From Candidatus Sulfotelmatobacter sp. (lineage in GTDB: Bacteria; Vulcanimicrobiota; Vulcanimicrobiia; Vulcanimicrobiales; Vulcanimicrobiaceae), in assembly GCA_035504415.1 (NCBI GenBank), contig DATJRY010000005.1, positions 161,061-225,060 of the forward strand: a DNA stretch of 64,000 nucleotides, in the 5' to 3' direction. A program made the translations under genes and the position numbers. Shown piece by piece: positions 34,409-52,990 of the stretch. The notes beneath the pieces are model-generated. The model saw only the letters and a program-made list of their open reading frames with translations. It searched no databases and was not told the DNA's origin. Numbering within the stretch: the first letter of the stretch is position 1; each line of letters begins with the position of its first letter.

Positions 34409-35239
34409 TTATGCGCCGAGCGCTTCGCGGCGCCGGTGGCCGCCGAAGATCGGCGGCAGGTCGATCGGTGCCGCGGCGATCCGGTGCAGCACGGGCAGGA
34501 TGCGATCGCGCACTTCGGCCGGCGCGAACGAGGCGGTCGGGCCGACCGCGTTGAGGGCGGCGACGACGCGGCCTTCCGCATCGCGCAGCGGCACCGCCGC
34601 GCTGGCGATCCCGGTCTCGATCATCCGCAGCGCGACCGCATAGCCGTCGCGGCGCACCTGCGCGAGATCGGTCAGCAGCGTCGGCAGATCGGCGATCGTG
34701 TTCTCGGTATAGACGGCGAACGCGCCCTCACCGTAGAGCGCGCGCACGCGCGCTTCGGGCAAGTGCGCCAGCAAGACGCGGCCGATCGCCGTCGCGTGCG
34801 CCGGCAGCGCCGAGCCGGCATGGACTTCGAACGGCAGCAGCTGGCGCACCGCGCTGCGCGCGACGTGCACGACGACGCGCCCTTCGAGGATGCCGACGTT
34901 GGCGGTGTGGCCCAGCTCGTCGGAGACGAGCGTGACCCGCGCTTGCAGATCGGGATCGTTGAGCGCGGTGCGCACCTTGGCGCCGACCCACATCAGCTTC
35001 GGTCCCGCTCGATACACCTTGGTCTCGGGATTGAACGAGAGGTACTCGAGCGCCGTCCAGGTCTGCAAGATGCGGTGCGCGACCGAGTGCCCGAGGCCCA
35101 GGCGGCGCTGCACGTCGCGCAGCGTGAGTGCTCCCTCACCGACCAGCAGCTCGAGGACCTCGGCCGAGCGGCCCACGGTCCGTAATTGCTCGTCGTTCTT
35201 CCCGTTTCTCGGGAAGCTTTTCCCGTTTTCCACCTGCAT
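34409..35239 (-). CDS. IclR-family transcriptional regulator
   Basis: 276 residues if translated from ATG 35239; a downstream GTG would give about 250. The winged helix (GRSAEVLELLVGEGALTLRDVQRRLGLGHSVAHRIL) is followed by an effector-binding domain with ATAIGRVLLAHLPEARVRALYGE and DGYAVALRMIETGIASAAVPLRDAEG. It is the first gene of the ABC/acyl-CoA operon and divergent from the TonB receptor, so autoregulation together with control of the operon is likely. Palindromes at 35198-35224 fall in its 5' region. Confidence 0.87.
   Translation of the reverse strand: MQVENGKSFPRNGKNDEQLRTVGRSAEVLELLVGEGALTLRDVQRRLGLGHSVAHRILQTWTALEYLSFNPETKVYRAGPKLMWVGAKVRTALNDPDLQARVTLVSDELGHTANVGILEGRVVVHVARSAVRQLLPFEVHAGSALPAHATAIGRVLLAHLPEARVRALYGEGAFAVYTENTIADLPTLLTDLAQVRRDGYAVALRMIETGIASAAVPLRDAEGRVVAALNAVGPTASFAPAEVRDRILPVLHRIAAAPIDLPPIFGGHRRREALGA
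35198..35229. promoter_or_regulatory. TTCCCGTTT repeats and overlapping palindromes at the 5' end of the IclR gene
   Basis: CTTCCCG-N5-CGGGAAG (35198-35216) overlaps GGGAAGCTTTTCCC (35211-35224), and TTCCCGTTT occurs twice 21 bases apart, two helical turns. If the IclR start is at the later GTG, this block is upstream and could be its operator; if the start is 35239 it lies in codons 6-14. Confidence 0.4.
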
Positions 35240-35354
35240 CCGACTGTACGGCAACGCGTTGCGCCGGTCAACGCTCGCGGCGGACCGTTTCTCCAAGCGA
35301 AACCAAGCCCCAGTCCACGGGGAGGCTTGGATTTAGATTTTCCTCAGACAAGGA

Positions 35355-38695: not shown

Positions 38696-39277
38696 GTGTC
38701 GCACCACGGCGGCGTCATCGGCGTGTCGGATCACGGCGGCTGGGCGGTGCTGGTGACGGCCACGCGCGACGGCACGCTCCTCGACCGCCGCCGCGTCGAG
38801 CTCGTCGACGACGACTTGCCGGCCATCCCCCATCACCACGAATGTCAGCTGCTCCCGATGGACCAGGCGGTAGCGCTGGTCGAGCGCGTGCGCGCTTCGG
38901 CGGAACGGCACGCCGTCAGCGCGCTGGACGCCGTGGCGACGGCGGTGCCGGACGTGCGCGGCATCGCGCTGCGCACCCGTCCGCCGCTACCGGCCTCCGT
39001 CGCCGAACGCATCACCGACTACCGCGCGCGCAACGTCGCGGACTGGGTCATGTACCGCGAGGCGCTGGCTGGCGCCGCTGCGGCGCGCGGCTGGTCCGTC
39101 CAATGGTACGACGCGAAAACCGTGTTCGCGCTCGCCGGCCAGGCGTTGCAGATCGAGGACTTCGACACGCATTGCTCGCGGTTGCGCCGAACGTTCGGGC
39201 CGCCGTGGAATCAGGATCACAAGCTCGCGCTGGCGGCCGCCCTCGTCACCGCGACGACGCTCGAGCGCGCGCGGTAG
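38696..39277 (+). CDS. Conserved-looking hypothetical protein
   Basis: 193 residues from GTG 38696, nineteen bases after bfr. Not recognised. The N-terminal strands (GVIGVSDHGGWAVLVTATRDGTLLDRRRVEL) have the alternating pattern of an RNase H-like fold, and the C-terminus (FGPPWNQDHKLALAAALVTATTLERA) is helical. No signal peptide or membrane segment. It may belong to the bfd-bfr unit. Its last 32 bases overlap the convergent ThDP gene. Confidence 0.55.
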   Translation: MSHHGGVIGVSDHGGWAVLVTATRDGTLLDRRRVELVDDDLPAIPHHHECQLLPMDQAVALVERVRASAERHAVSALDAVATAVPDVRGIALRTRPPLPASVAERITDYRARNVADWVMYREALAGAAAARGWSVQWYDAKTVFALAGQALQIEDFDTHCSRLRRTFGPPWNQDHKLALAAALVTATTLERAR

Positions 39278-40922
39278 CGACGTCGAGGTCGGGCGTGAGC
39301 TGGTCGCGCTCGACGACGAGCTCGAGCAGCGCGGCGCGGCCGGCGGCGCGGGCGCGCGCGAACGCGGCCGGAAACTCCGCCGTCGCGGCGACCCGCTCGG
39401 CGTGCGCGCCGAAGGCTCGCGCGTAGGCGACGAAGTCGGGGTTCTGCAGCTCGGTCGCGATGACGCGGGCGGGGAACTCGCGCTCTTGGTGCGCACGGAT
39501 GCTGCCGTACGAACCGTTGTCGACGACGATGACGATCGGATCGAGACCGTACTGCGCGGCGGTGACCAACTCTTGCGCCGTCATCAAGAAGCAGCCGTCG
39601 CCGGCGAAGTCGATCACCACGCGCTCGGGGTGGACGAGCTTGGCGGCGATCGCCGCCGGCAGGCCGTAGCCCATCGTGCCGCTGGTCGGCGCGAGCTGCG
39701 TGTGCAACGGCCGGTAGCGGTAGAAGCGCTGCACCCAGATCGCGTAGTTGCCGGCGCCGTTGCAGACGATCGCGTCGCGCGGCAGCGTGTCGCGCAGATG
39801 TACCATGACCGCGCCCAGGTCGAGCGCGCCGGCACTCGGCGGCGGCTGCAGCCGCTTCTCGTAGTCCGCGTGCGCGGCGGTCGCCCAGGCGTCCCAGGGT
39901 CGCACCGGCAGCGGCGCGAGCGCGGCGAGCGCGCGCGCCATCGGCGCCACGCCGGCGTTGATCGGCAGCGTCGCGGTGTAGACGCGACCCAGCTCTTCGC
40001 TGCCGGGGTGAACGTGGATCAGCGTCTGCACCGGGCGCGGGATCGTCAGCAGCGTGTAGCCGTCGGTCGAGGTTTCGCCCAGGCGCGGACCGAGCGCGAG
40101 CAGCAGGTCGGCGTCGCGGATGCGCTGCGCCAGCGCCCGATCCATTCCCAAGCCGGCGTGCCCGGCGTAGAGCGGGTGCGCGTTGTCGAACACGTCCTGC
40201 CGCCGGAACGTGAGCGCGACCGGGAGTCCGAACGCGTCGGCGAACGTCTGCAGGTCCGCGCACGCCTCCGCGGTCCAACCACCGCCGCCGGCCAGCACCA
40301 ACGGCCGCTGCGCGCCGGCAAGCAGCGCGCGCAGCTGCGCCAGCTGCTCGGGCGCGGGGCTCGGCGGCGCGACCGTCACCGGCGGCGCGTCGGCGACGGC
40401 GGTCTGCTCGTCGAGCACGTCCTCGGGGATGCCGAGCACGACCGGGCCCGGACGCCCGTTGCACGCGGTCGCGAACGCGCGCGCGATCGCTTCGGGGATG
40501 CGGGCGGCCTCGTCGACCTGCTCGGCGTGCTTCGCCAGCGTCGCGAAGGTCGCGCGCACGTCGATCTCTTGCCATGCTTCGCGGCCGAGGTGTTCGCGCC
40601 CCGGCAAGCCGACGATCAGCACCAGCGGCGTCGAGTCCTGCTTGGCGGTGTGGACGCCGATCGACGCGTGCGTCGCGCCCGGCGCGCGCGTCACCATCAC
40701 GACGCCGGGCCTGCCGGTCAGCTTCCCGTACGCCTCGCCCATGTGCGCGGCCGCGCCTTCGTGGCGGCAGACGATGAACCGCATCGCATCGCGCCGATCG
40801 TACAGCGCGTCGAGCGCGCGAAGATAGCTCTCGCCGGGCACCCCGAAGATCAGATCGACGCCGTGCAGCGCGAGCGCCGCGACGAGCACCTCGCCGCCGC
40901 TGCGCCGCGGCGCCGCGCTCAC
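39246..40922 (-). CDS. Thiamine-diphosphate-dependent decarboxylase/lyase
   Basis: 558 residues; GTG 40922 overlaps the MFS stop by GTGA. The Pyr domain has the catalytic Glu55 in VCRHEGAAAHMGEAYGK, and the PP domain has the GDG-N motif (DFAGDGCFLMTAQELV...NGSYG). General resemblance is to acetolactate-synthase-like and benzoylformate-decarboxylase-like enzymes. There is no small regulatory subunit, and the operon context argues against branched-chain synthesis, so decarboxylation of an aromatic 2-oxo acid is the better inference. It is the last gene of the ten-gene UbiD operon. Confidence 0.82.
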   Translation of the reverse strand: MSAAPRRSGGEVLVAALALHGVDLIFGVPGESYLRALDALYDRRDAMRFIVCRHEGAAAHMGEAYGKLTGRPGVVMVTRAPGATHASIGVHTAKQDSTPLVLIVGLPGREHLGREAWQEIDVRATFATLAKHAEQVDEAARIPEAIARAFATACNGRPGPVVLGIPEDVLDEQTAVADAPPVTVAPPSPAPEQLAQLRALLAGAQRPLVLAGGGGWTAEACADLQTFADAFGLPVALTFRRQDVFDNAHPLYAGHAGLGMDRALAQRIRDADLLLALGPRLGETSTDGYTLLTIPRPVQTLIHVHPGSEELGRVYTATLPINAGVAPMARALAALAPLPVRPWDAWATAAHADYEKRLQPPPSAGALDLGAVMVHLRDTLPRDAIVCNGAGNYAIWVQRFYRYRPLHTQLAPTSGTMGYGLPAAIAAKLVHPERVVIDFAGDGCFLMTAQELVTAAQYGLDPIVIVVDNGSYGSIRAHQEREFPARVIATELQNPDFVAYARAFGAHAERVAATAEFPAAFARARAAGRAALLELVVERDQLTPDLDVATARARASSR

Positions 40923-42265
40923 GCCGTCACCGCGTCCAGTCGTTCGTCGCCTCCCTCGGGCACCAGCCAGTTCAGGACCAAGAAGACGATCATGGCGGCG
41001 CCGACGAAGACGCCGAGCCAGGTCGCGATCTCACTGGTCCGATGCGTCGCCAGCGTCACCAGCGTCGGCATGAAGCCGCCGATCGCGTAGCCGATGTTCC
41101 ACGACAGGGCCGTTCCCGACGCGCGGATCGCGGTCGGAAAACGGCGGTTGAGGAACAGCACGATCGGCGCGGTGGCGAGCGGCGAGACCATCGTGAGCAG
41201 CAGCGACCAGGTGCGCAGCGCACCGACCTGCGTCGGCTGCAAGGTTCCGAGCACGTGATAGAGGAGCGGCACGCACACCAGGCCCAGCACGCCGCCGAGC
41301 AGCATCGTGCGGCGCACCCCGAGCGCCCGGGTCACCAGGCCCGCGACGAACGCGGCGGCGATCGTCGCGATGCTGCTGACGATCAGGATGCTCCCGGCGA
41401 CCGGCTTGGGCACGCCCACGACGGTCGTCAGGAAGGTCGGGATGTAGCCCGACGTGAGATAATACAGGGTCGCGCCGCCGCCGACGACCAGCGCGTTGGT
41501 CACGAAGACGCGACGGTACGCGCTTCCGAAGAGCACGTGCAGCGGCCGAGCCCGAGTCGCCTTCGCCGCCGCCGCACGCCGCCACGCCGGCGTCTCGACC
41601 GTCGTCGCGTAGATGACGAGTCCCACCAGCGCGCTGAGCAGCCCCGAAAAGAACATCCAGCGCCAACCCCACACCGCGTAGGCCGGGCCGGGAAACGCGT
41701 GCGCGGTGATCGCGAACGCGATCGAGGCGAGCAGCGCGCCCGTCCCCGAACCACCGCCGCCGCTGGTCAGCCCCGAGACCACCGCGCGCCAGCGCGACGG
41801 TACCGTTTCGAGCCCGATCGTGTGCGTCGCGGCGACGACCCCGCCGACGAACACGCCTTGCACCAGCCGCAGCACCAGGAACAGGATCGGCGCCAGCAAG
41901 CCGACTTCTTGCAGCGTCGGCAGCGTGCCGAGCAGCGCCGTCACCACGCCGACGCCGATGAACGCCACCAACAGCGCCGGGCGGCGTCCGCGCCGGTCGG
42001 CGAACGGCCCGAACAGCACCGAGCCCACCGGCCGCATCACCAGCGTGACGCCGAACGCGGCATACACGGCGGCTAGCGACACGAGCGGGTTGTGCGCCTT
42101 GAAGAACAGCGGGCCGATGGTCGGCGCGACGTACAGGATGATGAACAGATCGAACAGGTCGAGCGCCCAGCCGAGCACCGACGCGGCGGCCGCGCCGAAC
42201 GCGCCGGTCGTGACCTGGACGCCGCTCGCCTCGACCAGCTCGCCGGCCGCGATGCCGCTGCTCAC
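40919..42265 (-). CDS. MFS transporter, metabolite:H+ symporter (MHS) type
   Basis: 448 residues; GTG 42265 overlaps the aldehyde dehydrogenase stop by GTGA. Twelve helices; the first has GWALDLFDLFIILYVAPTIGPLFF, and the loop is FGPFADRRGRRPALL, as in ShiA/PcaT/KgtP-type carboxylate importers. Placement among catabolic genes indicates it imports the substrate acid of the pathway. Substrate not assigned. Confidence 0.82.
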   Translation of the reverse strand: MSSGIAAGELVEASGVQVTTGAFGAAAASVLGWALDLFDLFIILYVAPTIGPLFFKAHNPLVSLAAVYAAFGVTLVMRPVGSVLFGPFADRRGRRPALLVAFIGVGVVTALLGTLPTLQEVGLLAPILFLVLRLVQGVFVGGVVAATHTIGLETVPSRWRAVVSGLTSGGGGSGTGALLASIAFAITAHAFPGPAYAVWGWRWMFFSGLLSALVGLVIYATTVETPAWRRAAAAKATRARPLHVLFGSAYRRVFVTNALVVGGGATLYYLTSGYIPTFLTTVVGVPKPVAGSILIVSSIATIAAAFVAGLVTRALGVRRTMLLGGVLGLVCVPLLYHVLGTLQPTQVGALRTWSLLLTMVSPLATAPIVLFLNRRFPTAIRASGTALSWNIGYAIGGFMPTLVTLATHRTSEIATWLGVFVGAAMIVFLVLNWLVPEGGDERLDAVTA

Positions 42266-43668
42266 GCCTCGAGCCCCTGCCAGTTGATGTGCTTGAGTTC
42301 GGTGAACAGCTCGAGCCCCTCGACCCCGCGCGTCCGGTTGAGGCCGGAGTGCTTGGTGCCGCCCGAAGGCATCTCGGCGAACGAGGCGTTGTAGCCGTTG
42401 ACCCACACGGTCCCGGCGCGAATCGCGCGCGCCATGCGCCACGCGCGGCGCACGTCGGCCGTCCACACGCCGGCACTCAAGCCGTAGTCGGTCGCGTTGG
42501 CGAGCGCGATCGCGTCGTCGTCGCCCTCGAACGGCTCGACGGTCACCACCGGGCCGAAGACTTCCTCGCGCACGATCGTCGCGCCGCGCGCGGGGCCGGC
42601 GACCACCGTCGCCTCCATGAACGTTCCGCTCAGGCCGGCCGGGCGCGCGCGCTTGCCGCCGGCCTCGATCGTCCCGGTCCGCTGCGGATCCTCGACGAAG
42701 CCGAGCACGCGCGCGAGGTGCTGCTCGGTGATCAGCGCGCCCAGATCGGTCGCTTCGTCGAACGGATCGCCGACGCGCAGCGCGCGCACGCGCGCGACGA
42801 TCGCCGCCAACACGTCGGCGTACACGCTGCGCTCGACCAGCACGCGGGTGCAGGCCATGCACATCTGCCCCGCCGTGACGAAGGCGTTGCGGACGACCGC
42901 GCTGACCGCGCGGTCCAGCTCGGCGTCGGCGAAGAGGACGTTGGAAGCCTTGCCGCCCAGCTCCAGCAGCACGGTCTTGAAGGTCGCGGCCGCGTCGCGC
43001 GCGATGATCGCGCCGGTCGCGGAGGAGCCCGTGAACGCGACCGCGCGCACGTCGGGATGGCGCACGAGTGCCGCGCCGACGCTCGGCCCGACGCCGTGCA
43101 CGACCTGGACGACGTCCTCGGGCACGCCGGCGCCGTAACCGATGTCCAGCATGCGCTGCACGACCAGCGGCGTCTGCTCGGCCGGCTTGAGCACCGCCGT
43201 CACCCCGGCGGCCAACGCCGGCGCCAGATCGCGCAGCACCAGCAGCAGCGGCCAGTTCCAGGGCGTGATGAAGCCGGTCACGCCGAGCGGCGTGCGTTCC
43301 AAGTGCGCGACCGAGCCGTCGGGCAGCGTCCCGGCGCGACCCCCGACATAGCGCGCGAGCCCGGCGTTGTAGCGCAACGCGTCGACGCTGCCGGCCACTT
43401 CCGCGCGCGCCTCGCGCACGATCTTGCCCGTCTCGCGCACGATCAGCGGCACCAGCTCGCCGGCCTGTGCTTCGAGCGCGTCGGCCCACGCCAGCAGCAC
43501 GCGCGCACGCAGCTTGGCGTCGCGCGACCACAGCCCGCGCTCGAACGCGGCGTGCGCCCGCGCGACCGCGCGCTGCACGTCCGCGGCCGACGCGAGCGGG
43601 ACGCCGCCCAGCTCCGCCCCGGTCGACGGATCGAACGAGCGCAGCACGTCGCCGGCGAGCGCCGTCAT
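42262..43668 (-). CDS. NAD(P)-dependent aldehyde dehydrogenase
   Basis: 468 residues; ATG 43668 overlaps the crotonase stop by ATGA. Catalytic Cys270 in AGQMCMACTR, Glu236 in LELGGK, and the TPWNWP motif with N138 are all intact. It oxidises an aldehyde to the acid. With the neighbouring crotonase, a side-chain-cleaving hydratase/lyase followed by aldehyde oxidation, as in ferulate-to-vanillate degradation, is one possible role; benzaldehyde dehydrogenase function with the ThDP decarboxylase is another. Confidence 0.87.
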   Translation of the reverse strand: MTALAGDVLRSFDPSTGAELGGVPLASAADVQRAVARAHAAFERGLWSRDAKLRARVLLAWADALEAQAGELVPLIVRETGKIVREARAEVAGSVDALRYNAGLARYVGGRAGTLPDGSVAHLERTPLGVTGFITPWNWPLLLVLRDLAPALAAGVTAVLKPAEQTPLVVQRMLDIGYGAGVPEDVVQVVHGVGPSVGAALVRHPDVRAVAFTGSSATGAIIARDAAATFKTVLLELGGKASNVLFADAELDRAVSAVVRNAFVTAGQMCMACTRVLVERSVYADVLAAIVARVRALRVGDPFDEATDLGALITEQHLARVLGFVEDPQRTGTIEAGGKRARPAGLSGTFMEATVVAGPARGATIVREEVFGPVVTVEPFEGDDDAIALANATDYGLSAGVWTADVRRAWRMARAIRAGTVWVNGYNASFAEMPSGGTKHSGLNRTRGVEGLELFTELKHINWQGLEA

Positions 43669-44504
43669 CGGCTCACGCCGTTGGCCGGACCGCGTTCCGC
43701 GTCGTGGCTGGGAAACCGCGGCTTGCGCTTCTCGCCGAACGCCGCCACGCCTTCGGCGAAGTCGGGCGTCATCCGCAGCCGGCCGTACTCGCGCCCCTCC
43801 AGCTCCATCGCGACGCTGAGCGGCGCTTCGGCGTTGGCGTCCAGGACGCGCTTGGCGGCGCGCAGCGCCGGCGCCGGCAGCGCGATCAGCTCGTCGACCA
43901 GCGACTGCACCGCGTCATCCAGCTCTGCCACCGGATGGACGCTGGTGAGCAGACCCCACGAGAGCGCCTCGGCCGCCGCGACGCGGCGGCCGCGCATCAC
44001 CATGTCCTTGGCGCGCCCGACGCCGGCCATGCGCGCGATGCGCTGCGAGCCGCCGCTGCCCGGAATCATCCCCAGCGTGATCTCGGGCAGCCCGATCAGC
44101 GTCGTGTCGCTCGCGACGCGGAAGTCGCACGCCAGCGAGAGCTCCAGCCCGACGCCGAACGTGTAGCCGGTCAGGCGCGCGATGACGGGCTTGGGGCAGC
44201 GCTCCGGCGCGGCGACGTTCCACGCCAGATCGGAGAGGTGCTCGGCGTCGGTCTCCATGAACTGCGCGATGTTGCCGCCGGCGCTGAACGCTTTCTCGCC
44301 GGCGCCGCGCACGACGATCACGCGCACCGCCGGGTCCTCGCTCAGCTCGTCGAAGAGCTTGGCCAGCACGGCCCGGCCGGGATACGGCAGGCGGTTGAAG
44401 TGCGGCTCGTCGTCGAGCATGACGGTCGCCACGCGGCGAGCCGAATCGATCTCGGCGTGCAGCGCGTGCGCGCGCAACAGCTCGACGTTCTGCGAGGTCT
44501 TCAC
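43665..44504 (-). CDS. Enoyl-CoA hydratase/isomerase (crotonase)
   Basis: 279 residues; GTG 44504 overlaps the ligase stop by GTGA. Oxyanion-hole segments FSAGGNIAQF and FGVGLELSLACDF, and the active-site loop LPEITLGMIPGSGGSQRI. It is distinct from the crotonase at 31 kb (different linker and FGVG rather than LGGG). Hydratase or hydratase-lyase activity on an aryl-enoyl-CoA is plausible from its position between a CoA ligase and an aldehyde dehydrogenase; it lacks obvious feruloyl-hydratase-lyase signatures. Confidence 0.85.
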   Translation of the reverse strand: MKTSQNVELLRAHALHAEIDSARRVATVMLDDEPHFNRLPYPGRAVLAKLFDELSEDPAVRVIVVRGAGEKAFSAGGNIAQFMETDAEHLSDLAWNVAAPERCPKPVIARLTGYTFGVGLELSLACDFRVASDTTLIGLPEITLGMIPGSGGSQRIARMAGVGRAKDMVMRGRRVAAAEALSWGLLTSVHPVAELDDAVQSLVDELIALPAPALRAAKRVLDANAEAPLSVAMELEGREYGRLRMTPDFAEGVAAFGEKRKPRFPSHDAERGPANGVSR

Positions 44505-46024
44505 GAGGGAATCTCCTGCGGGAGCGTGGTGTAGTTACCGGCGCGCAGCTCGGTGCGCAGCACCTTGCCCGAGGCCGACTGGGGGATCGCGGCGACGAAC
44601 ACGTATTCGCGCGGCCGTTTGAACTGGGTCATCCCGCTGCCGCGGGCGTAGGCGTCGAGCTCGGCGGCACTGACCGCCGCCAGCGGCTCGACGAAGGCGA
44701 CGATCTTCTCGCCCAGCCGCTCGTCGCGCACGCCGATGATCGCGCAGCGTCCGACCGCGGGGTGCGCGGCGATGACGTCCTCGACCTCGGCCGGATAGAC
44801 GTTCTCGCCGCCGGTGATGATCATGTCGTCGACGCGGCCCAGGACGAACAGGTCGCCGTCGTCGTCCTTCATCCCGAGATCGCCGTTGAAGTACCAGCCC
44901 GAGCGGATCGCCTTCGCGTCGGCGTCGGGCCGCCGCCAGTACCCCGCGAACGCCTCCTCCGAATCGAGCCGCGCAATGATCTGGCCCGACTCGCCGGGCA
45001 CGCACACGTCGTCCGGGTCGTCCGAGCCGAGCCGCACGACGCGCACGCACTCGTTGAGCCCGGCCTTGCCGGCGCAGGCCGGCTTGCGGTCGAGCTGGTC
45101 GTAGATGGTGAACGTGTAGATCTCGGTCGAACCGTAGTGGTTGACGAAGATCTCGGGCGCGAACAGCGCGAAGCAGCGCTCGACCAGCGAGGGCGTCATC
45201 GGCGCGCCGGCGTAGCCGAGCTTCGTCAACGAGCGCAGATCGCGCGCCTCGATCCCCGGCACGTGCACCAGATCGTAGTACAGCGTGGGCGCCAGGTAGA
45301 GGTTCGTGATCCGCTCGCACTCGATCAGGTCGAGCGCGCCGGCGGCGTCGAACTTCGGCATCGACACGAAGGTGCCGTTGGTCAGCGCCATCGCGACCAG
45401 CGAACGCACCCCCATCGTGTGGTAGAGCGGCATCGACCCGAGGGTGACCTCGCCGCGACGGTAGCGGTTCTGCGCGACGTGCGCCAGCGCGGCCGCCCGT
45501 TCGGCGCGATGCGTGCGCGGCACGCCCTTGGGGCGGCCGGTCGTTCCGGACGTGTACAGGAGGATCGCCGTCGCCGTCTCGGCGACCGGCGGCAGCGTCG
45601 CGGGCGGCGTCCGCACCAGCGCGGCCCAGCTGGTCGCGGCGCCCACGACCGTTCCGACGCCCACGGTGGGAACGGCGTGCGCGACGCGCGCGATCTGCGG
45701 CCCGACGTCCTCGACCACCGCGCAGCGCGGCTCGGCGTCGCCCACGATATAGGCCAGCTCGCCGTCCGCCAGCCGCCAGTTGACCGGCGTGATCGCGGCG
45801 CCGAGCAGCGCGCACGCCCAGTACAGCGTGCACAGCGGCTCGCCGTTGCGCAGCACCGCCAGCACGCGGTCGCCCTCGCCGACGCCCAGCGCGCGCAAGC
45901 CGGTCGCGACCGACGCGATCCGCGCCAGCCATTGCGCGTAGGTCAGCCGCAGCGTGCCGTCGACCAGCGCCGGTGCGTCCGGCTCGCGTTCGACCGCGTC
46001 GCGGAAGCTCGTCGCCAGATCCAT
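44501..46024 (-). CDS. Aromatic/aliphatic carboxylate-CoA ligase
   Basis: 507 residues. ATG 46024 shares its A with the stop of the 2Fe-2S gene (TGATG). ANL ligase: phosphate loop YTSGTTGRPKG, GYAGAPMTPSLVERCF, NHYGSTEIYTF, GWYFNGDLGMKD and C-terminal PQSASGKVLRTEL. Features such as the STEIYTF stretch resemble benzoate/4-chlorobenzoate-CoA ligases more than fatty-acid ligases. It supplies the acyl-CoA for the molybdenum hydroxylase, crotonase, or both. Confidence 0.84.
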   Translation of the reverse strand: MDLATSFRDAVEREPDAPALVDGTLRLTYAQWLARIASVATGLRALGVGEGDRVLAVLRNGEPLCTLYWACALLGAAITPVNWRLADGELAYIVGDAEPRCAVVEDVGPQIARVAHAVPTVGVGTVVGAATSWAALVRTPPATLPPVAETATAILLYTSGTTGRPKGVPRTHRAERAAALAHVAQNRYRRGEVTLGSMPLYHTMGVRSLVAMALTNGTFVSMPKFDAAGALDLIECERITNLYLAPTLYYDLVHVPGIEARDLRSLTKLGYAGAPMTPSLVERCFALFAPEIFVNHYGSTEIYTFTIYDQLDRKPACAGKAGLNECVRVVRLGSDDPDDVCVPGESGQIIARLDSEEAFAGYWRRPDADAKAIRSGWYFNGDLGMKDDDGDLFVLGRVDDMIITGGENVYPAEVEDVIAAHPAVGRCAIIGVRDERLGEKIVAFVEPLAAVSAAELDAYARGSGMTQFKRPREYVFVAAIPQSASGKVLRTELRAGNYTTLPQEIPS

Positions 46025-46515
46025 CAGCGCGCGTCCGCCGCGGCGACGTCGAGCACGGCCTCGACGATCGGCGCGTACCCCGTGCAGCGGCACAGGTGGC
46101 CCGAGAGCATCTCGCGCACGCCGCGCTCGCTGACCTCCTCGCCGCTCTCCAGGTACGCCTGGGCCGACACCAGGATCCCGGGCGTGCAGAAGCCGCACTG
46201 CAGCGCGTGCCGCTCGCGGAACGCTTCTTGCAGCGGCGAGAGCGCCTCGCGCGTGCCCTGCGAGGCGACGGTCCGCACGTCGGCGCCGTCGGCCTGCACC
46301 GCGAACAGCAAGCACGAGCGCGTGACGCGGCCGTCGAGCCGGATGGTGCACGCGCCGCACACGCCGTGCTCGCAGCCGACGTGCACGCCGGTCGCGCCGC
46401 ACTCGGTGCGCAGGAAATCGTGCAGCAGCGTGCGCGGCGCGACCTCGCGGCGCAGCCGGCGCCCGTCGACCGTCACCTCGACGGTCAGCCGCTGGTCGCT
46501 CTCGCAGGACGTCAT
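46024..46515 (-). CDS. Molybdenum hydroxylase small subunit ([2Fe-2S])
   Basis: 163 residues; ATG 46515 overlaps the medium subunit stop by ATGA. Two [2Fe-2S] clusters: C48, C53, C56, C68 in the plant-ferredoxin-like domain and C107, C110, C142, C144 (QCGFCTPG, HLCRCTGY) in the helical domain. It carries electrons between the molybdenum site and FAD. A standard CoxS/XdhC-like subunit. Confidence 0.93.
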   Translation of the reverse strand: MTSCESDQRLTVEVTVDGRRLRREVAPRTLLHDFLRTECGATGVHVGCEHGVCGACTIRLDGRVTRSCLLFAVQADGADVRTVASQGTREALSPLQEAFRERHALQCGFCTPGILVSAQAYLESGEEVSERGVREMLSGHLCRCTGYAPIVEAVLDVAAADAR

Positions 46516-47381
46516 CCTTCTTCTCCTCGGGCATCGTGCAAGGCGGCGCGCAGCACCCGCCGCGCCAAGACGCCGGCCAGCTGGCGGCGGTACGCGGCGC
46601 TGGCCCGGTGATCGCCGAACGGCTCGATCTCGCGCGCGGCGCGCGCCGCCAGCGCGTCGATCGCCGCCGCGTCGAGCGTTCGGCCGACGTGCTCCGCCGT
46701 GCCGAGCACGACCGGAACGTCGCCCACGCCGCCGAGCACCAGCCGCAGCGCGTCGAGCGCGTCGTCGTCGCGCAGCCGCAGCGCGCAGGCGGCCGAGACG
46801 ATCGCGAAGTCGCCGTGTCGTTCCGCGAACTCGTCGAACGCGTAACCGTCGCGGCCGCGCCGAACCGGAAAACGCGCCCGGACCAGCAGCTCGTCGGGCT
46901 CCAGCGCGGTGGTGAAGTGCGCGACGAAGAACGCCGCCGCGTCGAGCGTGCGCGTCCCACGCCGCGAGGCGCACTCCAACCGCGCGCCCAACGTCGCCGC
47001 GACGACCGGCAGCTCCGCGCTGGGGTCGGCGTGCGCGAGGGAGCCGCACAGCGTGCCGCGGCTGCGCGTCTGCCAATGGCCGACGAACGGCAGCGCGCGC
47101 GCCAACAACGGAACGTGCTCGCGCACGAGCGCGCCGCTCAGCACGTCGCTCTGGCGCACCAGCGCGCCCACGGCCAGCTCGTCGCCGTCGAGCGCCAGCG
47201 TCGACTCGTCGAGCCGGTTGACGTCGACCAGCCGCGCCGGGCGCGCGAACCGCATGTTCATCGCCGGCACCAGCGACTGGCCGCCGGCCAAGACCTTCGC
47301 CTCGTCGCCGTGCGTCGCCAACACCTCGAGCGCCTCGGCGCGCGTGGCGGGCCGATGGTACGCGAACGCGGCCGGCTTCAC
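46512..47381 (-). CDS. Molybdenum hydroxylase FAD-binding (medium) subunit
   Basis: 289 residues; GTG 47381 overlaps the large-subunit stop by GTGA. The FAD-binding motifs AGGQSLVPAMNMR and TRSRGTLCGSLAHADPSAE (a TIGGN-type loop changed to TLCGS) are visible. No 4Fe-4S insertion, so it is not a classical anaerobic 4-hydroxybenzoyl-CoA reductase medium subunit. It belongs to the CoxM group and passes electrons to an unknown acceptor. Confidence 0.9.
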   Translation of the reverse strand: MKPAAFAYHRPATRAEALEVLATHGDEAKVLAGGQSLVPAMNMRFARPARLVDVNRLDESTLALDGDELAVGALVRQSDVLSGALVREHVPLLARALPFVGHWQTRSRGTLCGSLAHADPSAELPVVAATLGARLECASRRGTRTLDAAAFFVAHFTTALEPDELLVRARFPVRRGRDGYAFDEFAERHGDFAIVSAACALRLRDDDALDALRLVLGGVGDVPVVLGTAEHVGRTLDAAAIDALAARAAREIEPFGDHRASAAYRRQLAGVLARRVLRAALHDARGEEG

Positions 47382-49822
47382 GGCGCCCCCTGCGCGCGCT
47401 GCGCCAACAGCGACCACACGCGCCCGGGCGTCAGCGGCAAGGTGACGTCCTCGACGCCGAGCGCGTCGGCGACGGCGTTGGCGATCACGACCGGAACGCT
47501 CATCGAGTTCCCCTCGCCGACGCCTTTCGCGCCCAGCGGCGTGAACGGCGAGGGGACGTTCTCGTGGCCGATCCGCAGCGCCGGCATCTCGGTCGCGGTC
47601 GGGATCAGATAGTCGGCCAGCGTGCCGGAGAGCAGCGCGCCGTCCTCGCCGTAGGCCATCTCCTCGAACAGCGCGCCACCCAATCCGTGCGCGAAGCCGC
47701 CGTGGATCTGGCCGTCGACGAGCTTGGGGTTGAGGATCGTGCCGCAATCGTGCACGGTGACGTACTGCTCGACGGTGACCTGCCCGGTCTGCGCGTCGAC
47801 GCGCACGTAGCAGACGTCGGCGATGAAGCCGTAGACGGCCGACGAGTCGACGGTGTCGTCGTCGGACGGCGGCGCGAGCATCGGGAGCGAGAAGTAGGCC
47901 GTCTCGAACACGCCCGGCTCCATCCCGGCCGGCAGCGCGACGGGATTCCAGTGCGCCAAGCCCGCCAGCCGTTTGACCGGGACGCGCTTGCGCGAATCGC
48001 CCAGCGCGACCGCGTTGCCGCCGGTCAGCACGACGTCCTCGACGGCCACGCCGAGCTCGCGCGCCGCCAGGGTGCGCAGCTTGGTCGCGACCTTGCGCGC
48101 CGCTTGTTGGATGGCCGCGGAGGCGACCGGCGCGAAGCGGCTCGAGTACGAACCCGATGCGATCGACCACGGGCTGGTCTGGGTGTCCATCTCCGCGACG
48201 ACCTCGATGCCCTCGTACGGCACGCCCAGCTCGTCGGCGACGATCTGCGCCGCCACCGTCTGATGGCCTTGCCCTTGCGGCGTCGTGCCGAGGCGCACGG
48301 TGACCGCGCCGAGCGGATCCATCGCGACGGTCGCCGCCTCGGTGCAGCCCGACTTGGGCAGCGACCCTTCGCGCATCTCGCGCGTCAGCGCGATCGAGAC
48401 GTAGCCCATGTTCGAGCCCGACGGCTCGACGATGCAGCCGATGCCGATCCCGGCCAACGTGCCGGCGGCGCGATCGGCGTCGCGGCGCGCGAGCAGCGCG
48501 TCGTAGTCGGCCATCGCCAGCGCGCGGTCGAGCGCGCGGTGGTAGTCGCCCGCGTCGTAGATCGAACCCGGCGGCGCGTGATAGGGAAACTCGTCCGCGC
48601 GCAGCAGATTGCGCCGGATCACCTCGAGCACCGGCAGACCCAGCCGTTGCGCGACGCGCACGACCAGCCGTTCGAGCGTGAAGTACTGCTCTTGTCCGCC
48701 GTAGCCGCGATTGAGGCCGGTCGGGAGCTTGTTGGTGACGACGATGCGGTTGTCGATCTTGACCGCGGGGATGCGGTACGCGCCGGTGACGGAACCGTGC
48801 ATGCGGTACAGGCAGGCGGGCTCGGGCGCGCGCACGTAGGCGCCGCAGTTGTCGACCTGGTCGAGCGCGAGCGCGAGGATCGTGCCGTCGCGTTTGACGG
48901 CTGCCTGAGCCCGGGTCAGCCGGTCGGTCGAGCTCGAGGCGGCCTGCAGGTGCTCGAGCCGGTCTTCGATCCAGCGCACCGGCACGCCGGCGACGCGCGC
49001 CGCCACCGCGAGCAGCACGATGTACGGGTAGACCAGCGCCTTGATGCCGTAGCTGCCGCCGATGTCGGGCGGCACGTGGATGCGCAGGTGATTGCCGGCC
49101 ACGCCGAGCGCGCCGGCCATCACCGCGTGCAGGACGAACGGGCCGTGGAAGTTGGCGTGCACGACGTAGGTGCCCGCGCCCAGGTCGTAGTTCGCGATCA
49201 CGCCGTACGTCTCGATCGGCGTCGAGCCGTACTTGGGGAACGAGACGTCCAGCTCGACGACCTCGTCGGCCTGCGCGAAGGCGCCCGCGACGTCGCCGTA
49301 CACGAACGAGCGCTGGTGGACGACGTTGCTTCCGACGCTCTCGTGCAGCGGCGCCGAGTCGCCTCGCAGCGCATCCTCGATCCGCACCACCGGCGGCAGC
49401 TCGTCGTACGCGACGACGATCGCTTCGAGCGCGTCCTCGGCCAGATAGCGGTCGCGCGCGACCACGACCGCGACCGGCTCGCCGACGTAGTGGACCTTGT
49501 CGATCGCGCAGCTGTAGAACGGGAGCTTGGTCTCGATCCCGACGCTGAACGGTTTGGTGTAGCGCTCGACGTCGCGACCGGTGACGACGGCCAACACGCC
49601 CTCCATCGCCAGCGCGTCGGCGACGTCGATCGAGACGATGCGCGCGTGCGGATACGGGCTGCGCAAGATCGCCGCGTGGTGCGTGTTGGGGAACGGCGAG
49701 AGATCGTCGATGAAGCGCCCGGCGCCGGTCAAGAGCGCCGGGTCCTCCTTGCGCGGCACGCCGGTGCCGACCAGCGTCGGGCGCGGCTCATCGGTCGTCG
49801 TGCGCGGCGGGCGGGTGATCAC
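47378..49822 (-). CDS. Molybdenum hydroxylase large (molybdopterin-binding) subunit
   Basis: 814 residues from GTG 49822, overlapping the IclR stop by GTGA. Xanthine-dehydrogenase/CO-dehydrogenase-like: first domain GTGVPRKEDPALLTGAGRFIDDL, Moco-binding segments PPDIGGSYGIKALVYPY, TGLNRGYGGQEQYF and TTPQGQGHQTV, and the catalytic Glu in LGAKGVGEGNS. The CO-dehydrogenase-specific AYRCSFR loop is absent, so it is not CODH. With a CoA ligase and UbiD in the same operon, hydroxylation of an aromatic or N-heteroaromatic substrate is likely. No Moco maturation factor is in the operon. Confidence 0.9.
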   Translation of the reverse strand: MITRPPRTTTDEPRPTLVGTGVPRKEDPALLTGAGRFIDDLSPFPNTHHAAILRSPYPHARIVSIDVADALAMEGVLAVVTGRDVERYTKPFSVGIETKLPFYSCAIDKVHYVGEPVAVVVARDRYLAEDALEAIVVAYDELPPVVRIEDALRGDSAPLHESVGSNVVHQRSFVYGDVAGAFAQADEVVELDVSFPKYGSTPIETYGVIANYDLGAGTYVVHANFHGPFVLHAVMAGALGVAGNHLRIHVPPDIGGSYGIKALVYPYIVLLAVAARVAGVPVRWIEDRLEHLQAASSSTDRLTRAQAAVKRDGTILALALDQVDNCGAYVRAPEPACLYRMHGSVTGAYRIPAVKIDNRIVVTNKLPTGLNRGYGGQEQYFTLERLVVRVAQRLGLPVLEVIRRNLLRADEFPYHAPPGSIYDAGDYHRALDRALAMADYDALLARRDADRAAGTLAGIGIGCIVEPSGSNMGYVSIALTREMREGSLPKSGCTEAATVAMDPLGAVTVRLGTTPQGQGHQTVAAQIVADELGVPYEGIEVVAEMDTQTSPWSIASGSYSSRFAPVASAAIQQAARKVATKLRTLAARELGVAVEDVVLTGGNAVALGDSRKRVPVKRLAGLAHWNPVALPAGMEPGVFETAYFSLPMLAPPSDDDTVDSSAVYGFIADVCYVRVDAQTGQVTVEQYVTVHDCGTILNPKLVDGQIHGGFAHGLGGALFEEMAYGEDGALLSGTLADYLIPTATEMPALRIGHENVPSPFTPLGAKGVGEGNSMSVPVVIANAVADALGVEDVTLPLTPGRVWSLLAQRAQGAP

Positions 49823-50607
49823 GACGGATCGTCTCCGCTGCCCAGCTCGCGCTCGATCTTCGCGCGCGCCGGACGCAGCAGCGCGACCAGCTCGGCGTGG
49901 TCGAGCTGCTCGAACCGGAAGCGCGGGATGCAGAAACCGAACGCCGCGATGGTCGTCCCGTCGGCCAGCCGCAGCGGCATCGCGATCCCGCCGACCTCGC
50001 CGCGGTACTCGCCGCGGTTGATCGCGTAGCCGTCGCGGCGGATGGCGGCCAGCTCGTCGAGCAGCACGGCCGGTTCGACCAGCGTCTGATCGGTGTAGCG
50101 CCGCAGCGCGCGCGCCACCCGCTGCTGCTCGGCCTCGGGCTGCATCGCCAGCAGTGCCTTCCCGGTCGAGGTCGCCGCGGCGGGGAAGCGCAGCCCGATC
50201 GGCGAGACGCTGCGCACCGCATGCGTCCCTTCGATCACGTTGACGTACGTGCCGTAGCCCTTGCCGCTGTAGATCGCCAGCTGCGTCGTCTCGCCGGTCC
50301 GGTCGCGCAGCGCGCGCATGTGCGGCGCGGCGACGTCGACGACGTTGCCGCCGCCCAGCGTCGCGCGCCCGATCCGCCACCAGTGCTGGGTGAGTCCGTA
50401 GCGGCCGGTGTCGGCGTTCTGCCGTGCGTATCCGCGCCGCTCGAAGGTCGCCAGGATGCGATACACGGTGCTCTTGTTGATCCCCGCCAACGCCGCGCAC
50501 TCGCTGATGCCCAGATCCCGCTGTCCGTCGGAGGCGAACGCTTCGAGCACGTCGAGCACGCGATCGACCGACTGCAGCGAGGTCGCGCCCGGCTCGGGGG
50601 CGGTCAC
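49819..50607 (-). CDS. IclR-family transcriptional regulator of the UbiD operon
   Basis: 262 residues from GTG 50607, overlapping the UbiD stop by GTGA. Winged helix SVDRVLDVLEAFASDG...ISECAALAGINKSTVYRILATFERRGY, effector domain with SPIGLRFPAAATSTGKALLAMQ and DGYAINRGEYRGEVGGIAMPLR. Being inside the operon, it likely controls it via the palindrome at 52050-52066. The effector is probably the pathway's aromatic acid. Confidence 0.87.
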   Translation of the reverse strand: MTAPEPGATSLQSVDRVLDVLEAFASDGQRDLGISECAALAGINKSTVYRILATFERRGYARQNADTGRYGLTQHWWRIGRATLGGGNVVDVAAPHMRALRDRTGETTQLAIYSGKGYGTYVNVIEGTHAVRSVSPIGLRFPAAATSTGKALLAMQPEAEQQRVARALRRYTDQTLVEPAVLLDELAAIRRDGYAINRGEYRGEVGGIAMPLRLADGTTIAAFGFCIPRFRFEQLDHAELVALLRPARAKIERELGSGDDPS

Positions 50608-51998
50608 CCGCGGTCCTCGGCGCCGGCGAAGGTCCGGCCTGCGCTCGGCACCGCCACGGCGGCCGGATCGATCGCGTCCTCGCCCGGAATGCGAATGCGC
50701 AGATACCGGAAGCGGTCGGCGTCCAGCGGAATCGTGCAGTCGAAGCCGACCTTCGTCCCCAAGCCGTCCTCGGTCGAGGGGTCGAGCTTGGAGCCCTGCG
50801 CGGCGTTGACGACGATCAGGTCGCGATCGGCCTGGAAGCGGGTCGCGAACGCCCACTCGACGTCGGCCGGATCGGAGATGTCGACGTCGGGATCGACGAC
50901 GTAGACGTGCTTGACGTCGAAGCTGTTGGCGAACGCGGCCAGGATCGCGTTCTTCCCCTGACCTTTGACCCGCTTGTCGATCTGCACGACGGCGTGGTAG
51001 CGGCAGAACGCGCCGACCGACATGCGCACGTCGCGCACGGTCGGCACCGCTTGCCGCACGGTCTGCAGCAAGCTGGCTTCGCGCGGGATCCCGCCGAGCA
51101 GCAGATGTTCCATCGCCGCCGGCACGATGGTGTGGAAGATCGGGTTGGTGCGGTGCGTGATCGCGCTGACCTCGACCACTTCTTTGTCGCTGCGCGGCCC
51201 GTAGTACTTGGGGAACTCGCCGAACGGCCCTTCGGGCTCGCGTACGCCCGGTAGGATCTTTCCTTCGATCACGAACTCGGCGTGCGCGGGAACGTCGACG
51301 TCGACGGTGGTGCAGCGCACGACCGGAAGCGGCTCCCCGCGCAACGCACCGGCGATCTCCAGCTCGTCGACGCCGAAGGGCGTCGAGGCCTGCGAGGCCA
51401 GCAGCGTCACCGGATCGATCCCGACTACGATCGCGCACTCGAGCGGCGCGCCCCGGCGTTCGGCCGCGACCTGCAGGTGGTGCGTGTGGCGCGGCAGGAT
51501 CAGCGCGCCGAAGCGGTTCTTGCCCGAGACCTGCAAGCGATGGATCGACACGTTCTGCTTGCGCGTGACCGGATCGCGCACGATGAACAGTCCCGCCGTC
51601 ACGTAGTCGCCCGCGTCGTGCTCGTGGTGCACCGGCATCGGCAGGGTCGCGCGCAGATCGACGGCCGCGCCGGCGAGGACGTGCTGCTGGCAGGTCGCCT
51701 CGGCGTGCTCGACGCGCCGCACCGGCAGCGGCGCCGCGACGGCGGCGGTGAACGTCGCCAGCAGGTCGGCCTCGGCGACGCCGCAGGCTTCGGCGATCAT
51801 CGCGCGCGTCGAGACGATCCCGCTCACGACCGGCGTCGTGTGCCCGGTCACGGCGGTGAACAGCACCGCTCGCCCGTCGAGCCGCTTGGCGATCGCGGCC
51901 AGCTCGAACCGCAAGTCCACCGGCCGTTCGACCACGTCGAGGCGGTGGGTGGCTTGGAGATGGTCGAGCCAAGTGCGCAGGGTCGCGGCGGGGATCAC
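50604..51998 (-). CDS. UbiD-family prenyl-FMN-dependent (de)carboxylase
   Basis: 464 residues from GTG 51998, first gene of the operon. Reversible decarboxylation of an aromatic or alpha,beta-unsaturated acid using prenylated FMN. The prFMN-contact Arg is in SIHRLQV and the Glu-Arg catalytic region is EPEGPFGEFPKYYGPR. The FAIIVGIDPVT-like segment (CAIVVGIDPVTLLASQ) and CTIPLDADRF are typical too. The flavin prenyltransferase UbiX needed for its cofactor is not in the window and must be elsewhere. Confidence 0.9.
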   Translation of the reverse strand: MIPAATLRTWLDHLQATHRLDVVERPVDLRFELAAIAKRLDGRAVLFTAVTGHTTPVVSGIVSTRAMIAEACGVAEADLLATFTAAVAAPLPVRRVEHAEATCQQHVLAGAAVDLRATLPMPVHHEHDAGDYVTAGLFIVRDPVTRKQNVSIHRLQVSGKNRFGALILPRHTHHLQVAAERRGAPLECAIVVGIDPVTLLASQASTPFGVDELEIAGALRGEPLPVVRCTTVDVDVPAHAEFVIEGKILPGVREPEGPFGEFPKYYGPRSDKEVVEVSAITHRTNPIFHTIVPAAMEHLLLGGIPREASLLQTVRQAVPTVRDVRMSVGAFCRYHAVVQIDKRVKGQGKNAILAAFANSFDVKHVYVVDPDVDISDPADVEWAFATRFQADRDLIVVNAAQGSKLDPSTEDGLGTKVGFDCTIPLDADRFRYLRIRIPGEDAIDPAAVAVPSAGRTFAGAEDRG

Positions 51999-52049
51999 CC
52001 AGCGCCCTTCACGCCGCCGCCGCGAGCGCCCCTCCCAGAGCGAACGATC

Positions 52050-52066
52050 GTTTCGCTGAACGAAAC
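52050..52066. promoter_or_regulatory. GTTTCG-N5-CGAAAC palindrome, candidate IclR operator
   Basis: A perfect 6+5+6 inverted repeat 52 bases upstream of the UbiD start. Its size and GTTnCG/CGnAAC flavour resemble operators of IclR-type aromatic regulators such as PobR and PcaU. It is the only obvious palindrome in the 187-base stretch before the next possible gene start. Confidence 0.5.
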
Positions 52067-52185
52067 ACGGGCCGGGAAGGAGCAGTGTCCGTTACCGTAC
52101 CGGCGGCGACGGGGGACTTCGCGTACACTCAGGATCGAGCGGTACCACCGTGCGGCGGCACCATTTCACGTTCAGGAGAGCCCTG

Positions 52186-52419
52186 ATGGTCCTCGAACGT
52201 CTCCCTCTCTGGATCACCGCGTGGCTGCACGCCGGTGACGACGATCCGAGCGAAGCGCGCCGGACGGCGGCGCTAGCGGCGCATGAGGACGAGCTCGCGC
52301 CGGGTCTCCCAGCCGGCTCGCTCGAGCTCCGGCGTGCCGGAGAGCTCGATCGGATACCCGATACAAAGGTACGCCGTCAAGCGCCACGCCGGCGGAACGT
52401 CGAGCGCGCTCGTCACTGA
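52186..52419 (+). CDS. Possible small protein of unknown function
   Basis: 77 codons from ATG 52186, with AGGAGA seven bases upstream. It begins MVLERLPLWITAWLHAGDDD, a short amphipathic stretch. The 3' two-thirds lie antisense over the bluB tail, so only the first 29 codons are outside another gene. Expression is uncertain; the strong ribosome-binding site is the only real support. Confidence 0.3.
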   Translation: MVLERLPLWITAWLHAGDDDPSEARRTAALAAHEDELAPGLPAGSLELRRAGELDRIPDTKVRRQAPRRRNVERARH

Positions 52420-52905
52420 CGCCGGGTCGAGAATCGAGACCCACCCGACGCCGAGCCCGCGCGCCCGGGCCGCCAGCCAGAGGTTCTGCACGGCGGCGAC
52501 CGTCGAGTAGGCCAGCGTCTCGGGCATCGTCGCGCGGCCCAGTCCGCGGCCGACCGCGGTCGCCTCGTCGGTGAAGACGGCCAGCTGCACCGGCGCATCG
52601 TCGAGCCCGGCGAGCTTGAGTCCGGCGTACCGCCGGGCGTCCTCGCCCGCGTAGCCGCTCAGCGCGTCGGCGTTCGCCGCGCGAAAGCTCGCCGCCACGG
52701 CCGCTCGCGCCGCCTCGCCTTCGACCAGCACGAACCGCCACGGCTGACTGTAACCGACCGACGGGGCGCAGCGGGCGGCTTCGAGCAGCTCGTCGATCGC
52801 GCCCGGCGCGAGGGGATCGCGCGCGAAACGGCGGACGTCGCGACGGAGGTGCAGCAAGCGGTCGAGGTCGCGCACGAAGCTCGTTTCGAAGGCGCCGGGT
52901 TCCAT
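52273..52905 (-). CDS. bluB: 5,6-dimethylbenzimidazole synthase
   Basis: 210 residues from ATG 52905, with AAGGAG seven bases upstream. A nitroreductase-fold enzyme that splits reduced FMN with oxygen to make the lower ligand of vitamin B12. BluB marks are present: LHLRRDVRRFARDPL near the N-terminus with the catalytic Asp, AAPSVG-like APSVGYSQPWRFV, and LGVGWVSILDP. No other cobalamin gene is visible. Divergent from the Nramp-like gene with 85 bases between, which may share a promoter region. Confidence 0.88.
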   Translation of the reverse strand: MEPGAFETSFVRDLDRLLHLRRDVRRFARDPLAPGAIDELLEAARCAPSVGYSQPWRFVLVEGEAARAAVAASFRAANADALSGYAGEDARRYAGLKLAGLDDAPVQLAVFTDEATAVGRGLGRATMPETLAYSTVAAVQNLWLAARARGLGVGWVSILDPASVTSALDVPPAWRLTAYLCIGYPIELSGTPELERAGWETRRELVLMRR

Positions 52906-52990
52906 CGCCGACTCCTTCGCCGTTGCGGCCGCGCTCCCGGTCGCGGCTGCGAACGCTTCGAGCGTTCGCCCGCCGGGTAGGGGACGGGGA

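What the first reader, a model, noticed from the sequence alone, without database searches (positions are those of the whole stretch)
39246..51998. Ten-gene, end-to-end-overlapping aromatic catabolic operon centred on UbiD and a molybdenum hydroxylase
Ten genes on one strand overlap by 1-4 bases at every junction: UbiD, IclR, Mo-hydroxylase large/medium/small, CoA ligase, crotonase, aldehyde dehydrogenase, MFS, ThDP enzyme. Seen directly. This set does not match a textbook pathway I know. A route using UbiD (de)carboxylation, Mo-dependent ring hydroxylation, CoA activation, side-chain hydration, aldehyde oxidation and a 2-oxo acid decarboxylase would degrade an aromatic or heteroaromatic acid with its own importer. 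The gene combination is inference; each family is established.
Basis: partly seen in the sequence, partly recalled or inferred. Interest (0 to 1): 0.8.

Follow-up and report, generated by a model that had tools for sequence, protein, structure and literature searches.

The report
Furan-acid degradation operon in Vulcanimicrobium
Ten overlapping genes in a bacterium of the little-studied phylum Eremiobacterota match, in gene order and enzyme type, a known bacterial pathway for eating furan acids (breakdown products of plant sugars), so the bacterium is predicted to import these acids and would turn them into 2-oxoglutarate, and the operon carries one extra enzyme of unknown role.

Summary
In detail: ten genes (39246-51998, minus strand) overlap at all nine junctions. 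The claim that the set matches no known pathway is not: it is an hmf-type furan-acid operon. [quoted passage not shown] an MFS importer, aldehyde dehydrogenase and IclR regulator complete it. The order L-M-S-ligase-crotonase recurs in plasmids of Cupriavidus, Caballeronia, Rhizobium and Geobacillus and in 48 of 80 named-genome loci. The genome groups in one genus with a genome of exactly the chromosome length of Vulcanimicrobium alpinus, in which no close hmf large subunit was found. Unusual: a palindrome before the operon, also present before iclR-led hmf operons of order relatives; no CoxG, as in two family relatives; and a ThDP enzyme as tenth gene, found also in hmf clusters of Xanthobacter oligotrophicus and Bradyrhizobium murdochi. 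Its reaction is unresolved: 2-oxoglutarate decarboxylase would fit chemically, but a 2-oxoglutarate dehydrogenase gene is present. No substrate was tested. New variant of a known kind; moderate interest.

The parts
50604..51998 (-). ubiD-type gene, HmfF-like, predicted 2,5-furandicarboxylate decarboxylase (464 aa)
   Evidence: Best PDB matches 6h6v and 6h6x (496.8 and 484.2 bits), next other enzyme AnInD 204.3; a PMC8988006 passage gives 6H6V as HmfF; many relatives named 2,5-furandicarboxylate decarboxylase 1; H298/R306/R333 kept
49819..50607 (-). IclR-family regulator (262 aa)
   Evidence: PF01614 and PF09339; 45-48% homologue directly before moL in three same-order genomes
47378..49822 (-). 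molybdenum hydroxylase large subunit, HmfA-like, predicted 2-furoyl-CoA dehydrogenase (814 aa)
   Evidence: PF01315, PF02738, PF20256; 91% relative named 2-furoyl-CoA dehydrogenase large subunit; no CSFR motif
46512..47381 (-). FAD (medium) subunit, HmfB-like (289 aa)
   Evidence: PF00941, PF03450; conserved order
46024..46515 (-). [2Fe-2S] small subunit, HmfC-like (163 aa)
   Evidence: PF00111, PF01799; conserved order
44501..46024 (-). acyl-CoA ligase, HmfD-like, predicted 2-furoyl-CoA synthetase (507 aa)
   Evidence: PF00501, PF13193; 54% to the Cupriavidus necator pENH92 gene in the same place
43665..44504 (-). crotonase-fold gene, HmfE-like (279 aa)
   Evidence: PF00378; 50-69% to its counterpart in the hmf loci; both hydratase-type glutamates (E121, E141) kept in 18 of 18 loci compared
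42262..43668 (-). aldehyde dehydrogenase, predicted furan aldehyde dehydrogenase (468 aa)
   Evidence: PF00171; 45-48% to ALDH beside HmfF-type UbiD in L004 and L005, 38-43% to ALDHs in other hmf loci except L068 (36%)
40919..42265 (-). MFS metabolite:H+ symporter type, predicted furan-acid importer (448 aa)
   Evidence: PF07690; TIGR00883 193.9 bits, below its cut-off of 443.45; 45-51% to MFS genes inside other hmf clusters
39246..40922 (-). ThDP-dependent enzyme, NF006052/PRK08199 subfamily (558 aa), role unknown
52050..52066 (.). palindrome GTTTCG-N5-CGAAAC, predicted IclR operator, beginning 52 bp before ubiD
   Evidence: one exact match in the window; elsewhere in the fetched loci (2.7 Mb) only copies of this same site; GTTTC-N7-GAAAC before iclR in L133 and L134

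Best explanation
The ten overlapping genes match known hmf gene clusters in order and enzyme type, and are predicted to import furan carboxylic acids and would degrade them through 2-furoyl-CoA to 2-oxoglutarate. Predicted steps: the MFS protein imports the acid; the aldehyde dehydrogenase would oxidise furan aldehydes (furfural, 5-formyl-2-furoate) to acids; the UbiD enzyme, with prenylated FMN made by a UbiX encoded elsewhere in the genome, would decarboxylate 2,5-furandicarboxylate to 2-furoate; the ligase would make 2-furoyl-CoA; the three-subunit molybdenum enzyme would hydroxylate C5; the crotonase-fold enzyme would complete the route to 2-oxoglutarate by ring opening or thioester cleavage. 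The IclR protein likely represses the operon from a palindrome that begins 52 bp before the first gene. The tenth gene, a ThDP enzyme, likely acts on a 2-oxo acid or aldehyde of this route; its reaction is unknown. Shown: gene order, families, homology, conserved residues, palindrome. Inferred: every reaction, the substrate, the direction of transport and the regulation.
For: Intact overlapping frames. UbiD scores 497 bits with 6h6v against 204 with the next other enzyme. A His that I take to be the HmfF residue called key to furan specificity in a PMC7976604 passage (placed through the alignment), with two arginines, is kept in 18 of 18 HmfF-type UbiDs that cover the sites. Large-subunit relatives are named 2-furoyl-CoA dehydrogenase. 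The order moL-moM-moS-ligase-crotonase stands in four annotated plasmids (Geobacillus with CoxG between) and in 48 of 80 named-genome loci (the script counts 49, and I removed L100, whose ligase and crotonase lie on the other strand). Of those 49, 16 have MFS at 45% or more, 14 UbiD at 45% or more, 8 ALDH at 35% or more. UbiX and XdhC genes lie elsewhere in the genome. Cluster table of P. umsongensis GO16 (PMC12064950 passages).
Against: No enzyme or growth test exists. The names are mostly automatic annotation. No NCBIfam equivalog is passed by the large subunit. UbiX, XdhC, MobA-like, GMC or iron alcohol dehydrogenase and AraC genes found in other hmf clusters have no match in the window. 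CoxG, found in 16 of 19 hmf loci searched, is missing here. UbiD L008, not shown to be hmf-linked, also has the three residues. A ThDP gene is seen in only 2 of the 49 loci.
Confidence: 0.88

Rival explanations
1. The same enzyme logic is used for another five-membered heteroaryl acid, such as pyrrole- or thiophene-2-carboxylate, rather than furan acids.
For: UbiD enzymes act on several heteroaromatic acids, pyrrole-2-carboxylate among them (PMC7976604 passages). No assay exists here.
Against: Pyrrole-2-carboxylate decarboxylase PA0254 scores 103 bits against 497 for HmfF. PA0254 has Asn where HmfF has the furan-specificity His, and the window protein has His. The whole hmfABCDE order is kept.
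Confidence: 0.08
2. Hydroxycinnamate (ferulate) degradation: CoA ligase, hydratase-lyase and vanillin dehydrogenase, with UbiD decarboxylating the resulting benzoate.
For: Ligase, crotonase and ALDH are adjacent, and that trio is known for ferulate (recalled). The vanillate-type UbiD model VdcC matches at 293.4 bits.
Against: That model's cut-off is 650 and HmfF is far closer. The crotonase is 50-69% identical to its counterpart in the hmf loci. The trio would not need the Mo enzyme.
Confidence: 0.02
3. The molybdenum enzyme is an aerobic CO dehydrogenase, 4-hydroxybenzoyl-CoA reductase or xanthine dehydrogenase, with the other genes unrelated to it.
For: Best NCBIfam matches are CO dehydrogenase (499.5 bits) and glyceraldehyde dehydrogenase (489.1); the best PDB match is a CoxL.
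Against: Scores are far below the cut-offs (950, 790; 4-hydroxybenzoyl-CoA reductase 392.2 against 994.55; xanthine dehydrogenase 359.3 against 780). CSFR is absent. Homologues sit with ligase and crotonase.
Confidence: 0.02

Closest known systems
hmf clusters (hmfABCDE, hmfF, hmfT) of Cupriavidus basilensis HMF14 and Pseudomonas umsongensis GO16
   Same: Three-subunit Mo enzyme, ligase, HmfE, UbiD-type FDCA decarboxylase, transporter, aldehyde dehydrogenase (PMC6678421 and PMC12064950 passages). Their sequences were not held; the comparison is by described function and by relatives.
   Different: Here one overlapping operon led by UbiD and an IclR gene; the GO16 table lists LysR and AraC regulators, a UbiX-like PsfC and PsfD. 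Extra ThDP gene here; the words IclR, thiamine and acetolactate do not occur in the GO16 main text.
hmf region of Geobacillus kaustophilus plasmid pHTA426 (L033)
   Same: Crotonase 54%, ligase 49%, large subunit 57%, MFS 45%, UbiD 64% identical
   Different: Carries CoxG, XdhC, MobA-like, MoaA and ModB genes; no ThDP match in the 26-kb stretch
hmf cluster of Xanthobacter oligotrophicus 29k (L075)
   Same: UbiD, hmfABCDE, MFS, ThDP enzyme of the same subfamily (58-60%) and ALDH in one stretch
   Different: AraC and LysR regulators, UbiX and CoxG present; its ThDP enzyme lies in another branch of the tree

Membership tests
hmf furan-acid catabolic cluster | contiguous hmfABCDE order: Mo L, M, S, CoA ligase, crotonase | tested here: met
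hmf furan-acid catabolic cluster | HmfF-type UbiD decarboxylase with the furan-specificity His | tested here: met
   the paper numbers the His 297, I count 296 in the 6h6v chain, so the match is by alignment; the two arginines are recalled from Payne 2019, which is not held
hmf furan-acid catabolic cluster | source of prenylated FMN (UbiX) | tested here: met
   no match in the window; one UbiX over its cut-off elsewhere in the genome
hmf furan-acid catabolic cluster | CoxG gene or domain with the large subunit (common in clusters, not shown to be required) | tested here: not met
   absent from the window, L041/L132 (identical) and L136; found in 16 of 19 loci searched; a COXG gene lies elsewhere in the genome
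hmf furan-acid catabolic cluster | turnover of, or growth on, furan acids | not testable with these tools
   needs an assay
aerobic CO dehydrogenase | CSFR active-site motif and score over the curated cut-off | tested here: not met
   CSFR named as active site in a PMC9758169 passage
cyanobacterial-type 2-oxoglutarate decarboxylase (for the ThDP gene) | substrate lysines equivalent to Lys386 and Lys471 of MaKGD | tested here: inconclusive
   by motif spacing alone, counted by hand, they seem absent; the MaKGD sequence was not at hand and not aligned
PRK08199 / NF006052 ThDP subfamily | score over curated cut-off 539 | tested here: met
   824.6 bits

The most novel reading that the evidence does not exclude
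A ThDP enzyme is an unrecognised working part of furan-acid degradation, recruited at least twice to hmf clusters in two phyla: it decarboxylates the pathway's 2-oxoglutarate to succinic semialdehyde, or joins or cleaves a furan aldehyde, giving the pathway a second exit or a detoxifying step that the published scheme lacks.
Probability: 0.2. Interest if true: 0.6.

Novelty: new variant of a known kind. Interest (0 to 1): 0.36.

Why it matters
Furan acids and aldehydes arise when plant sugars break down and hinder biomass processing, and 2,5-furandicarboxylate is a plastic monomer. The find places a complete predicted pathway in a phylum known mainly from uncultured genomes, offers a concrete regulator and operator to test, and raises one clear question: what a ThDP enzyme does in furan degradation. 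Genes of this kind in the phylum already carry such names in databases (P0249), so what is new is the arrangement, the regulation and the tenth gene.

Tried and rejected
ThDP enzyme plus ALDH as a bypass from 2-oxoglutarate to succinate: a 2-oxoglutarate dehydrogenase E1-type gene is present in the genome (PF16870), so no bypass is needed. The ALDH of the Xanthobacter ThDP cluster is 64-67% identical to ALDHs of two hmf clusters with no ThDP match nearby (L034, L035), so it is not a dedicated ThDP partner. In its favour, weakly: in the V. alpinus-sized genome a 57% ThDP relative lies 14 bp after a citrate synthase gene. Kept only as the novel case.

Separate origin of the UbiD gene (64-70% to Bacillota and Rubrobacter types, 47-49% to order relatives): the test did not reject one clade, p-AU 0.0754.
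Full report
Observation. The ten frames at 39246-51998 (minus strand) are intact and overlap at each of nine junctions, eight by 4 bp and one (small subunit/ligase) by 1 bp. A gap of 274 bp (51999-52272) separates ubiD from the next frame, a nitroreductase.

Identity of the pathway. The combination is the hmf set. In C. basilensis HMF14, hmfABCDE encode the Mo-dependent 2-furoyl-CoA dehydrogenase (A, B, C), 2-furoyl-CoA synthetase (D) and a proposed 2-oxoglutaroyl-CoA thioesterase (E), with no gene assigned to lactone hydrolysis (PMC6678421, passages). The GO16 cluster adds HmfF, transporters and an aldehyde dehydrogenase (PMC12064950, passages). The window UbiD scores 497 bits with PDB 6h6v and 204 with the next other enzyme; a passage of PMC8988006 gives 6H6V as HmfF. 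A passage of PMC7976604 says that His297 of HmfF is key to furan specificity; by alignment to 6h6v I take it to be His298 here, although I count 296 in the 6h6v chain. That His, with Arg306 and Arg333 (roles recalled; the source paper is not held), was checked in 26 loci. Of these, 18 are HmfF-type and cover the sites, and 18 of 18 have all three; 16 of the 18 lie beside hmf genes, while L004 and L005 are order relatives for which linkage was not shown. Two more HmfF-type matches (L042, L045) do not reach the sites. Of six other UbiDs, L008 also has all three and five do not, among them the second UbiD of this genome. Relatives of UbiD and of the large subunit carry, among other names, 2,5-furandicarboxylate decarboxylase 1 and 2-furoyl-CoA dehydrogenase large subunit; others are named only UbiD family or xanthine dehydrogenase family.

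Gene order elsewhere. Large-medium-small-ligase-crotonase stands in Cupriavidus necator pENH92, Caballeronia sp. M1242, Rhizobium sp. TCK and, with CoxG between, Geobacillus kaustophilus pHTA426. My rule counts 49 of 80 with the order; L100 has ligase and crotonase on the other strand, so 48. The others include cut contigs, split matches and Mo enzymes with other neighbours. Among the 49, UbiD at 45% or more is in 14, MFS at 45% or more in 16, ALDH at 35% or more in 8, IclR in none, ThDP at 50% or more in two. Many loci are cut, so these are lower bounds. Within the phylum, L133, L134 and L135 have iclR before moL; L132 and L136 have moL to crotonase but no match to ubiD, iclR, MFS or ALDH in the stretch read, and L132 begins 1.5 kb before moL.

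Organism. The genome is 4.17 Mb in 21 contigs. Of 149 genomes of the phylum, 6 have a close large subunit (E at most 1e-150), and of the ten other genomes of the genus none does; their best UbiD matches are at 1e-37 to 1e-42. Several are incomplete. In the large-subunit tree the Eremiobacterota rows and close metagenome proteins form one clade of 13 (100/99) beside Bacillota. So the operon is patchy in the phylum; loss and transfer were not told apart.

Regulation. A palindrome GTTTCG-TTCAG-CGAAAC lies at 52050-52066, beginning 52 bp before ubiD. With up to one mismatch the pattern occurs twice in the window against 0.16 expected (2 of 100 shuffles reach two); the second copy (one mismatch, 35287-35303) lies at the start of another IclR gene. 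In the loci held then (2.7 Mb) the exact pattern occurs only in copies of this same site. In L133 and L134, order relatives whose hmf operon begins with iclR, GTTTC-N7-GAAAC lies before or at the iclR start; L135 has it with one change; L133's copy covers the iclR start. These three are close kin and count as little more than one case. No sigma-70-type promoter was seen.

Differences from other clusters. CoxG was found in 16 of 19 hmf loci searched and not in the window, L041/L132 (one sequence) or L136; the last two genomes are of this family, and the three loci of the sister family have it. A COXG gene beside an XdhC gene lies elsewhere in the genome, as does UbiX.

The ThDP gene. It belongs to PRK08199 (824.6 bits, cut-off 539). 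The same subfamily lies in the Xanthobacter cluster (hmfE-MFS-ThDP-ALDH) and the Bradyrhizobium murdochi cluster (UbiX-UbiD-ThDP-AraC-hmfA). I searched 50 genomes that hold such loci (of 52 named; two dropped by the cap): 33 of 50 have 35 ThDP matches at E at most 1e-120, and the two hmf-linked ones score highest. Two linked where 0.15 are expected gives P about 0.01, computed after the pattern was seen and on a sample chosen by similarity. In the tree those two form one clade and the window lies in another, two gains on that tree (quick method). Metagenome proteins P0127 (ThDP, 73%) and P0002 (large subunit, 85%) share a longest-contig length of 59,052 bp, which suggests one more linked case. 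Nine of ten congeners have a 54-59% ThDP relative and no close hmf large subunit. In a sample of 397 genomes of the Xanthobacter order, 16 have a match at E at most 1e-185 and only the Xanthobacter one is hmf-linked. So the gene is common, mostly elsewhere, and only sometimes in hmf clusters. Its reaction stays open. A 2-oxoglutarate dehydrogenase gene is present, and the lysines of a cyanobacterial 2-oxoglutarate decarboxylase (PMC10418658, passages and section 2.5) do not seem kept by hand-counted motif spacing; both speak against that reading.

Literature. A search for Eremiobacterota with furan gave one unrelated paper; other searches on hmf genes and furan terms listed none on this phylum, and the 15 listed of 35 papers show none on a ThDP enzyme in hmf clusters by title and abstract. 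Only the open library was searched.

Verdict. A well-supported prediction of a known pathway in an under-studied phylum, with a testable operator and one unexplained gene.

Noticed in passing
window 32583-35296: A second IclR gene (34409-35296) lies before ABC importer genes (NMT1-like binding protein 33385-34377, weak match; permease 32583-33488); a one-mismatch copy of the palindrome overlaps its start at 35287-35303.
   Followed up: partly
window 56260-62403: ABC importer genes of branched-chain amino acid type (two ATPase frames, two permease frames, two binding proteins), minus strand, upstream of the operon.
   Followed up: partly
window 52273-54208: Nitroreductase frame (minus) and Nramp transporter frame (plus) overlap in coordinates.
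   Followed up: no
window 38696-39277: A 193-aa frame beside the operon end, plus strand, with no Pfam match, overlapping the ThDP gene end by 32 bp.
   Followed up: no
L005 and L006: HmfF-type UbiD matches of two of three same-order genomes show in-frame stop codons (one TAG; two TGA): decay or assembly error.
   Followed up: no
L153: In the V. alpinus-sized genome a ThDP relative lies 14 bp after a citrate synthase gene on the same strand.
   Followed up: partly
L033: Plasmid pHTA426 of Geobacillus kaustophilus carries an hmf-type gene set together with moaA, modB, XdhC and MobA-like genes.
   Followed up: partly
G091 and G092: Two same-family genomes carry at least 11 UbiD-type matches each (11 candidates were scored in each).
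   Followed up: no
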